The notes under the pieces are model-generated. The model was not told where the DNA came from and did no database searches. It saw only the letters and a program-made list of their open reading frames with translations. Both the position numbers and the translations under genes were made by a program. Shown piece after piece: positions 31,520 to 33,450 of a DNA stretch of 57,227 bases (position 1 is its first letter; each line of letters opens with the position of its first letter). This DNA comes from Microcaldota archaeon. Its GTDB lineage: Archaea; Micrarchaeota; Micrarchaeia; Micrarchaeales; Micrarchaeaceae. The DNA is taken from the NCBI GenBank assembly GCA_021845575.1, contig JAJZVQ010000003.1, forward strand, positions 1-57,227, in the 5' to 3' direction.

Positions 31520-32524
31520 TTATCTGTTATAATAATCTTTTACCCTGACTGTATCCTCAAGATGGGGTGTTGAATATTCCATCAATACTAAATTATTTGT
31601 TGCAACAATTGAATGGAGAGTATTTGGTTTTATTCTTATCACTTCGTCCTTTTTCATCATGTTTTTGCTGCCATCTTCTAACAATATATATCCTGAACCT
31701 GAGATAAGATGCATTGTCTCGTCTTTGTTCGGATGATAATGCATTGAAGTCTGATAACTTTTTTTAATATACAATTTTTTTGTCATATATTTTTCTGTAT
31801 TTATAACAACCTTTTCATACCCCCACGGCTTGTCTTCTTTATTCTCGTATTCTTTTCTCACATTTTCCAAATCTTTTATGCTATCGACTGACTGCCAAAA
31901 CACATTATTTTCAATATACGCGTTCATTTTCCTTGAAGCGACTAAATCTTGGAAAACAGTCATTTCCACGTCCCTTCCATCATATTCCCTATCAAAATAT
32001 TCATATGATGATTTTTTGAAATAGTAGATTCCGGCATTTATATATTTGTTTATAATAGGCTTTTCCACAAATTCAATTACTTTATCATCAATAAGATTAA
32101 TTATTCCGTATGGGCTACGCATTTTTGTAAGCACTATTGATGCATCATAGTTAGACTGCGCCGCGAAATTGACAAATTCATTAAAATTTATGTCAGTTAC
32201 TATGTCCCCGTTTCTTATCAGGCAATCAGTGTCAATATGCTTCAGAAAATTATTAATTGCATAAAGAGTGCCTTTTGGCTCTTTTTCCACAAGATAATGA
32301 AGTTTTATTCCGTTCCATGCATCCCCAAAAATCTCTTTTATCTTTTCATTTTTATACCCGACAAGCAGATAAACTTCTTTTATTCCGATATATTTAAAAT
32401 CAAATAGCTGTTTATGCATAATTGTCCAATCTTTTTTTATTTCTATTAAGGGTTTTGGGATCTCGCTTGTAATTGAACCTAATCTTTTTCCATAACCTCC
32501 AGCCAGTATTGCTCCGATTACCAT
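31520..32524 (-). CDS. Sugar-phosphate nucleotidyltransferase fused to a cupin (GMP/PMI-like)
   Basis: 334 residues from the ATG at 32524 behind AGGTGT. Residues 1-220 are a nucleotidyltransferase: AGGYGKRLGSITSEIPKPL (GxGxR...PKP), then RNGDIVTD and FVEKP. From about 232 a cupin begins with KPWGYEKVVI and has metal-binding HYHPNKDE and a late histidine (NTLHSI), as in the isomerase half of bifunctional mannose-1-phosphate guanylyltransferase/mannose-6-phosphate isomerases. It would make a nucleotide sugar, possibly GDP-mannose. It lies 10 nt downstream of a second nucleotidyltransferase. Confidence 0.82.
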   Translation of the reverse strand: MVIGAILAGGYGKRLGSITSEIPKPLIEIKKDWTIMHKQLFDFKYIGIKEVYLLVGYKNEKIKEIFGDAWNGIKLHYLVEKEPKGTLYAINNFLKHIDTDCLIRNGDIVTDINFNEFVNFAAQSNYDASIVLTKMRSPYGIINLIDDKVIEFVEKPIINKYINAGIYYFKKSSYEYFDREYDGRDVEMTVFQDLVASRKMNAYIENNVFWQSVDSIKDLENVRKEYENKEDKPWGYEKVVINTEKYMTKKLYIKKSYQTSMHYHPNKDETMHLISGSGYILLEDGSKNMMKKDEVIRIKPNTLHSIVATNNLVLMEYSTPHLEDTVRVKDYYNR

Positions 32525-32534
32525 GTTAATACAC

Positions 32535-33398
32535 CTAAACATTAATTTTATTATTTGATACCAATTCAGTCATTTTCTTTATATCAAAATTTGGATCTTT
32601 GTTGTTATCAAGAGAATGCCATATCCCAGAATGTATATAACCTGACAGTTTTCCGGTCTTTGCAAGCATCGGGAATAACCCATTTTCAAGCATTGATTTT
32701 TTTTCTGATTTTTTTATAAAATTTTTGACTTCAGGCTCGAATATATAAATTCCTGCATTGATCAAACCAGATTTTTCATTTTCCGTGTTTGGGGGTTTTT
32801 CTGCAAAATTAATTATTTTATACCCTTCAAGTTTTGTAACGCCAAATCTGGTTGGGGAATCGGAAGTTACAAGAGCCATGGTTGCCATCGAACCTGATTT
32901 TACATGCTGTTCGCACATGTTACCCATATCCATCCTGAATATATGGTCGCCGTTGAGCGCAAAAAAACGAATTCCACCAACTAAATCAATAATGTTTGCG
33001 AGTGCGCCCTCCGTACCAACATCCATTGGTTCTTTTATGTATTTTATACGAACTCCGAATTGGGAACCATCCCAGAAATATTTTATTATGCTGTCATTAT
33101 CCTCTCCTGTTGCTAATATTATATCAAATATGTTGTTTCTTTTGAGTTCCTCAATAATATACCTTAATATTGGTTTGCCCAGAATATTTACCATTGGTTT
33201 AGGTAATTTATGCCTGTTGATAGTTATAGTGGGTCCGCCAGCAAAAATCACCGCTTTTTTTGGATTTGACTGGGAAACGGCAGACCTTAAAATTTTTTCT
33301 ATTGCATGAGACCTGTTTCTTATTTCGGCCCCGTCTATAAAAACATCTACTTTATTAAGAAGCTCTGAGTCCAAAGTTATAGATATTTGTTTTTTCAT
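32535..33398 (-). CDS. Nucleotidyltransferase with N-terminal ribbon-helix-helix DNA-binding domain
   Basis: 287 residues. Residues 1-42 (MKKQISITLDSELLNKVDVF then IRNRSHAIEKILRSAV) form a textbook ribbon-helix-helix: one strand and two helices, as in CopG/NikR. From residue 48 a nucleotidyltransferase fold follows: IFAGGP (53-56), KLPKPM (64-69), VGTEGAL (127-133), LNGDHI (148-153) and FAEKPP. The GxGTR loop is replaced by GGPTITINRH and is about three residues shorter, so catalysis may be altered or lost. CGGTGT precedes the ATG. It may sense a nucleotide sugar and control its own operon (inference). Confidence 0.85.
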   Translation of the reverse strand: MKKQISITLDSELLNKVDVFIDGAEIRNRSHAIEKILRSAVSQSNPKKAVIFAGGPTITINRHKLPKPMVNILGKPILRYIIEELKRNNIFDIILATGEDNDSIIKYFWDGSQFGVRIKYIKEPMDVGTEGALANIIDLVGGIRFFALNGDHIFRMDMGNMCEQHVKSGSMATMALVTSDSPTRFGVTKLEGYKIINFAEKPPNTENEKSGLINAGIYIFEPEVKNFIKKSEKKSMLENGLFPMLAKTGKLSGYIHSGIWHSLDNNKDPNFDIKKMTELVSNNKINV

Positions 33399-33434
33399 TT
33401 TTACACCGATTAAAATATAAAATGTTATTTTATG

Positions 33435-33450
33435 ATATAATATATTATAT
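33435..33450. promoter_or_regulatory. 16-bp perfect palindrome upstream of the RHH-nucleotidyltransferase gene
   Basis: ATATAATATATTATAT is a perfect palindrome about 40 nt upstream of the RHH-protein start, in the 178-nt divergent region shared with the MetRS gene. RHH dimers bind short inverted repeats, so it is a candidate operator. It also resembles a TATA box, and A/T-only palindromes are common here. Confidence 0.3.

What the first reader, a model, noticed from the sequence alone, without database searches (positions are those of the whole stretch)
32535..33398. Ribbon-helix-helix DNA-binding domain fused to a sugar nucleotidyltransferase
Residues 1-42 form a clear RHH fold and the rest is a nucleotidyltransferase whose GxGTR catalytic loop is changed to GGPTITINRH while PKPM, GTEGAL and NGD remain. 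A metabolic fold tied to a DNA-binding head, and followed 10 nt later by a cupin-fused nucleotidyltransferase, suggests a sensor that reads a nucleotide sugar or sugar phosphate and regulates surface-glycan genes. I know of no well-described protein of this type. A 16-bp palindrome at 33435-33450 is a candidate operator.
Basis: partly seen in the sequence, partly recalled or inferred. Interest (0 to 1): 0.8.

Follow-up and report, generated by a model that had tools for sequence, protein, structure and literature searches.

The report
Gene switch built from sugar enzyme
This gene encodes a DNA-binding head joined to a worn-out sugar-nucleotide enzyme; hundreds of related proteins occur in tiny archaea and bacteria, many next to one recurring DNA address, so it is very probably an undescribed kind of gene switch that senses sugar building blocks.

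Summary
The fusion is real. The 287-aa minus-strand protein has an RHH head (best relative NikR) and a GMPP/RmlA-type nucleotidyltransferase (NTase) body whose GxGTR loop is lost. It is no gene-model artefact: the head is the most conserved part of a family with 458 scan hits; the 80 retrieved come from DPANN archaea and Patescibacteria. The GxGTR arginine is missing in 58 of 77 fused proteins but kept in essentially all unfused paralogues checked. Independently in four lineages, promoters of these genes are enriched for GTATGA, the E. coli NikR half-site, often as 10-bp-spaced repeats. Scanning genomes with the repeat alone found further RHH-NTase promoters, and promoters of phosphoglucose/phosphomannose isomerase, heptose kinases, fructose bisphosphatase and phosphoglycerate kinase. 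Best reading: an autoregulatory transcription factor using a degenerate sugar-NTase as ligand sensor, controlling sugar-phosphate and nucleotide-sugar supply. Autoregulation and regulon are computational inferences; ligand and direction of control are untested. I found no description in the open-access papers searched.

The parts
32535..33398 (-). RHH-nucleotidyltransferase fusion gene, 287 aa
   Evidence: open frame; 77 aligned full-length relatives with the same two-domain layout
33273..33398 (-). ribbon-helix-helix head, residues 1-42
   Evidence: NikR model 3.8e-6; family profile finds NikR and CopG structures; helices 11-20 and 29-42 in the model; RNRSHAIE block conserved
32601..33260 (-). 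sugar-nucleotidyltransferase fold, residues 47-266
   Evidence: PF00483 3.3e-32; Foldseek: GDP-mannose pyrophosphorylases and RmlA
33192..33242 (-). degenerate nucleotide-binding loop, residues 53-69, AGGPTITINRHKLPKPM (GxGTR lost, two residues shorter than intact relatives)
   Evidence: alignment with intact AGGKGTRMRPLTYEIPKPM members
32946..32954 (-). retained NGD motif, residues 149-151; Asp151 invariant in 77 members
33404..33407 (-). GGTG, possible ribosome-binding site before the ATG at 33398
   Evidence: read from the sequence
31520..32542 (-). downstream NTase-cupin gene, probable operon partner (alternative start 32524)
   Evidence: PF00483 1.2e-30 and PF01050 above cut-off; orthologue diverges from the RHH-NTase in L043 and L047
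33399..33537 (.). 139-bp intergenic region shared with a divergent methionyl-tRNA synthetase gene (name by eye from its sequence)
33421..33445 (-). possible decayed operator ATATATTATATCATAAAATAACATT (10-bp phased, poor match); not significant alone
   Evidence: genome-like background, no excess over shuffles in the window
   Evidence: 70 of 1000 shuffles reach 16 bp

Best explanation
It is a transcription factor. The RHH head dimerises and, in typical family members, binds tandem GTATGA boxes with 10-bp phase at its own promoter and at sugar-phosphate/nucleotide-sugar genes. The attached NTase fold no longer makes nucleotide sugars in this clade; it binds a sugar-1-phosphate or nucleotide sugar (GDP-mannose- or heptose-like most likely) and thereby changes DNA binding. 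In CPR members the boxes sit next to -35/-10-like elements, so repression is the likely default. Shown by sequence: fusion, conservation, loss of catalytic residues, operator motif, where it occurs in genomes. Inferred: DNA binding, repression, ligand, allostery. In the window copy the likely target is its own operon with the NTase-cupin, and its operator seems to have drifted together with residues 4 and 6.
For: Fusion conserved in at least 24 other genomes of the order and 458 scan hits. RHH head more conserved than the NTase in Micrarchaeota (69 vs 49%) and CPR (62 vs 46%). Catalytic Arg lost in 58/77 fused members, at least 5 changes on the tree. GTATGA top enriched hexamer in three archaeal groups, second in CPR; boxes upstream of 15/20, 4/8, 7/14, 16/35 genes versus 13/187, 6/68, 9/124, 24/310 for other genes; 0/11 for unfused NTases; 10-bp phasing. 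GTATGA is the E. coli NikR half-site (PMC7055735) and NikR is the head's nearest solved relative. Scanning by DNA alone finds RHH-NTase promoters in genomes not used before, and sugar-phosphate genes.
Against: No binding or expression data. The window copy has Q4/S6 instead of R4/T6 and lacks a clean operator. About half the non-Micrarchaeal members have no exact box within 150 bp. Ligand binding is inferred only from retained motifs and neighbours. Some lineages keep an intact active site, so the sensor-only model need not hold for the whole family.
Confidence: 0.74

Rival explanations
1. Trigger enzyme: a working sugar-1-phosphate nucleotidyltransferase that also represses its own operon through the RHH head, as trifunctional PutA does.
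For: Altiarchaeal, Diapherotrite and some Aenigmarchaeal members keep GxGTR, PKP, NGD and EKP; in Altiarchaeota the next gene is often phosphoglucomutase/phosphomannomutase, the enzyme that would feed it.
Against: The window and all 20 members of its clade have a scrambled loop; nearly all CPR members lost the Arg.
Confidence: 0.13
2. Regulatory subunit: a GMPPA-like inactive partner that controls the neighbouring active NTase-cupin by protein contact, with the RHH used only for dimerisation.
For: Tandem NTase neighbours in 19 loci of the neighbour cluster, including the window and divergent orthologues in L043/L047; top fold match is the GMPP family including the GMPPA/GMPPB complex; GMPPA is a non-catalytic GDP-mannose-binding paralogue (abstract of PMC11228364).
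Against: Most loci lack a paired NTase; the DNA-contact strand and the promoter motif are conserved, which a dimerisation-only role does not predict.
Confidence: 0.07
3. Chance or decaying fusion: an antitoxin-type RHH domain joined to a dying NTase gene.
For: RHH domains are common in antitoxins; this member scores weakly against RHH_1.
Against: The head is nearly invariant across many phyla, no toxin gene recurs beside it, and frame and fold are kept.
Confidence: 0.03

Closest known systems
NikR (nickel-responsive RHH repressor)
   Same: RHH head, R-x-T-x-T strand in most members, NRSxAI block, GTATGA half-site, separate ligand-sensing C-terminal domain
   Different: C-terminal domain is a sugar NTase fold, not the nickel-binding domain; boxes are tandem at 10 bp rather than one inverted pair 16 bp apart; window copy has Q4/S6
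GMPP/RmlA/HddC sugar-1-phosphate nucleotidyltransferases
   Same: fold and family of residues 47-266; NGD, GTEGAL and NAGIY kept
   Different: GxGTR loop lost and shortened; RHH head added
PutA with RHH domain
   Same: N-terminal RHH on a metabolic-enzyme fold, autogenous repression (PMC5293562 abstract)
   Different: unrelated enzyme; PutA stays active, this one appears inactive
ROK repressors (NagC/Mlc type; own knowledge)
   Same: sugar-enzyme fold turned into sensor for a DNA-binding domain
   Different: HTH plus sugar kinase instead of RHH plus nucleotidyltransferase
GMPPA (inactive regulatory paralogue of GDP-mannose pyrophosphorylase)
   Same: non-catalytic NTase fold proposed to sense a nucleotide sugar
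   Different: acts by contact with GMPPB, no DNA-binding domain

Membership tests
NTP_transferase fold family (PF00483) | profile match above curated cut-off | tested here: met
   112.5 bits against 21.2; all 77 aligned members match
active sugar-1-phosphate nucleotidyltransferase | GxGTR nucleotide-binding/catalytic loop | tested here: not met
   GGPTITINRH in the window, scrambled in its whole clade
active sugar-1-phosphate nucleotidyltransferase | catalytic activity | not testable with these tools
   needs enzyme assay
RHH (MetJ/Arc) DNA-binding proteins | strand-helix-helix head with profile match | tested here: met
   NikR model 3.8e-6, family head profile to NikR 5.8e-6 and CopG 0.0012, helices placed in the model; RHH_1 itself below cut-off for this member but 47 of 77 members match at E 0.01 or better
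RHH (MetJ/Arc) DNA-binding proteins | sequence-specific operator in own promoter | tested here: inconclusive
   strong GTATGA enrichment for the family, no clean site for the window copy; binding not measured
NikR | C-terminal nickel-binding regulatory domain | tested here: not met
   residues 47-266 are an NTase fold
PutA | proline dehydrogenase domain | tested here: not met
   Pfam scan shows only NTP_transferase-type and RHH matches
ROK repressors | ROK kinase fold plus HTH | tested here: not met
   no ROK match in the protein

The most novel reading that the evidence does not exclude
A previously undescribed transcription-factor class shared by DPANN archaea and CPR bacteria: an inactivated sugar nucleotidyltransferase is the sensor, the operator (10-bp-phased GTATGA) has been kept across both domains of life, and it governs how much carbon these small-genome cells send from gluconeogenesis into mannose/heptose nucleotide sugars for their surface coat.
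Probability: 0.45. Interest if true: 0.88.

Novelty: new variant of a known kind. Interest (0 to 1): 0.76.

Why it matters
Transcription control in DPANN archaea and Patescibacteria is almost unknown, and most cannot be grown alone. Here is a family with a predicted protein-DNA code, predicted targets and a predicted ligand class, all testable in vitro or with reporters in laboratory E. coli. It would also be a case of an enzyme turned sensor more than once, and of one operator retained across bacteria and archaea.

Tried and rejected
Gene-model artefact (start after residue 42): rejected, the head is conserved in 77 aligned homologues and a GGTG site precedes the ATG. Palindrome 33435-33450 as operator: near chance. 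Tandem GTATGA in the window's genome: no exact hit, relaxed hits equal the control. First genome-contig scan with the single protein found nothing; the alignment query worked. PGI/PMI and FBPase_3 as targets in the window's own genome: neither gene was found there. Viral carriage: none found in IMG/VR. Ten literature searches, eight of them about the fusion or its neighbours of meaning, gave no paper on RHH-NTase fusions (open-access subset only). The divergent gene of the sister family as a cupin: single-sequence Pfam failed; profile and fold support it. NikR-DNA complex paper PMC1564233 is not held, so R3/T5/T7 as NikR's base contacts rests on my own knowledge.

Full report
OBSERVATION. The ORF at 32535-33398 is on the minus strand and encodes 287 aa. 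Residues 63-260 match NTP_transferase at 3.3e-32. The head matches RHH_1 only at 0.01 in this member, but the NikR model matches residues 4-47 at 3.8e-6, and a profile from 23 family heads finds E. coli NikR (5.8e-6) and CopG (0.0012) in the PDB. AlphaFold is confident (pLDDT 91.6). Its fold neighbours are GDP-mannose pyrophosphorylases and RmlA enzymes. The window is one contig (C46) of a 779-kb draft genome; its closest named homologues are Candidatus Micrarchaeota.

A WIDESPREAD FAMILY. The fusion is not a one-off. It occurs in at least 24 further genomes of the same order. A scan of 84,980 species genomes gave 458 hits; the best 80, the only ones retrieved, are mostly labelled Micrarchaeota, Altiarchaeota, Aenigmatarchaeota, Diapherotrites, Nanoarchaeota or Patescibacteria (CPR) groups, a few only 'archaeon' or 'bacterium'. 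In 77 aligned full-length members D18, R29, S30, A32 and E34 of the head are invariant. In Micrarchaeota and CPR the head is more conserved than the NTase (69 versus 49% and 62 versus 46% mean identity); in Altiarchaeota and Aenigmarchaeota the two are about equal.

DEAD ENZYME. Altiarchaeal, most Diapherotrite and some Aenigmarchaeal members carry an intact GGKGTRxRP...PKPM-type loop. CPR members nearly all replace the arginine (for example GGxGxKMRPFTYEMPKAM). The Micrarchaeal clade (20 rows, SH-aLRT 100) has a shortened, scrambled loop, as in the window (GGPTITINRHKLPKPM). The arginine is lost in 58 of 77 fused proteins, while unfused and tandem NTases keep it (11 of 12 by the automatic rule; the twelfth, L003, reads GFAKRL and keeps an Arg by eye). 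The tree needs at least 5 changes. That this Arg is catalytic is established knowledge of the RmlA family, not tested here. Asp151 of NGD is invariant, so a sugar/phosphate pocket may persist.

OPERATOR. Upstream regions were compared with shuffles: GTATGA/TCATAC is the most enriched hexamer in three archaeal groups separately and the second in CPR. Regions with a box: 15/20 Micrarchaeota, 4/8 Altiarchaeota, 7/14 other DPANN, 16/35 CPR, against 13/187, 6/68, 9/124 and 24/310 for other genes in the same loci, and 0/11 for unfused NTases. Loci within a group are related, so these are not independent counts; the agreement between groups is the stronger point. Boxes recur at 10 bp in direct orientation (17 adjacent pairs) or at 20/30/40 bp, and inverted at 11 or 21 bp, as expected for RHH dimers stacked on one DNA face. 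E. coli NikR binds GTATGA-N16-TCATAC (PMC7055735), and NikR is the closest solved relative of this head. The hexamer ranking did not use that fact. In several CPR promoters the boxes follow TTGAC-like elements, which suggests repression.

REGULON. Tandem GTATGAnnnnGTATGA is rare. In 29 genomes chosen because they carry the gene, 17 of 26 hits lie within 250 bp of it; that test is partly circular. Less circular: in 35 relatives of one CPR genome all 6 exact hits lie at RHH-NTase promoters, two of them in genomes not used before (reversed control 0). In 164 genomes of the window's order there were 8 hits (reversed control 0): 4 known RHH-NTase promoters, 2 upstream of bifunctional phosphoglucose/phosphomannose isomerase, 1 upstream of a gene resembling the bicupin neighbour by eye (no Pfam match), 1 inside a gene. 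In 59 Aenigmarchaeal relatives, the 12 hits in genomes not scanned before front 4 RHH-NTases (L165, L166, L167, L173), an HddA-type heptose kinase, 3 RfaE-type heptose kinases, phosphoglycerate kinase, an aldolase-like DUF2090 protein and a phosphoribosyltransferase, with one unclear. Genome G176 adds fructose-1,6-bisphosphatase. For GTATGAAAAAGTATGA the reversed control overlaps the pattern itself, so it is not an independent control there.

NEIGHBOURS. In the sister family of Micrarchaeota the gene often diverges from (7 of a 10-locus cluster) or precedes (3) a conserved bicupin protein whose second cupin resembles archaeal cupin phosphoglucose isomerase. In L043 and L047, the window protein's nearest relatives on the tree (support 87), it diverges from an orthologue of the window's NTase-cupin. 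In 7 mostly Altiarchaeal loci it is followed by phosphoglucomutase/phosphomannomutase. Mannose/glucose/heptose supply is the common theme.

THE WINDOW COPY. It is unusual. Residues 4 and 6 are Gln and Ser instead of the usual Arg and Thr. No exact GTATGA repeat exists in its genome, and relaxed hits do not exceed control. The intergenic region has only ATATATTATATCATAAAATAACATT, not above chance. PGI/PMI (TIGR02128) and FBPase_3 were not found in this draft genome. Its operator has probably drifted with its recognition residues, and its likely target is its own operon with the NTase-cupin. This is the weakest part of the case.

VERDICT. I rate the inactive-sensor regulator at about 0.74 and an active trigger enzyme at 0.13. 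Ligand and sign of control are open.

Noticed in passing
L048 8913-9959 and 8 other CPR loci: A weak DUF6206-like protein (about 350 aa, E 4.4e-6, below cut-off) usually follows the RHH-NTase directly in CPR bacteria; function unknown, possible partner or target.
   Followed up: partly
L145, site at 1501: In one Uhrbacterial genome a second perfect GTATGATATAGTATGA lies just upstream of a glutamate dehydrogenase-type gene, so the regulon may reach beyond sugars.
   Followed up: partly
L173 693-1469 and 1577-2332: A strongly degenerate RHH-NTase diverges from an intact NTase (GGLGTRLRPLT) with the tandem GTATGA site between them: a neat natural dead/active pair.
   Followed up: partly
L040 (JAKBPE010000007.1): Record titled 'bacterium' carries a Micrarchaeota-type RHH-NTase nearly identical to that of L036; the title is probably wrong.
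   Followed up: no
L064 and L076 (Doudnabacteria and a relative): An independent scrambling of the GxGTR loop (AGGKPVYFDSEKK.LPKAM) inside the CPR clade, with inverted GTATGA-N5-TCATAC boxes upstream.
   Followed up: partly
window genome G000: No TIGR02128 PGI/PMI and no FBPase_3 gene found in this 94%-complete genome, suggesting reduced gluconeogenesis or replacement enzymes.
   Followed up: partly
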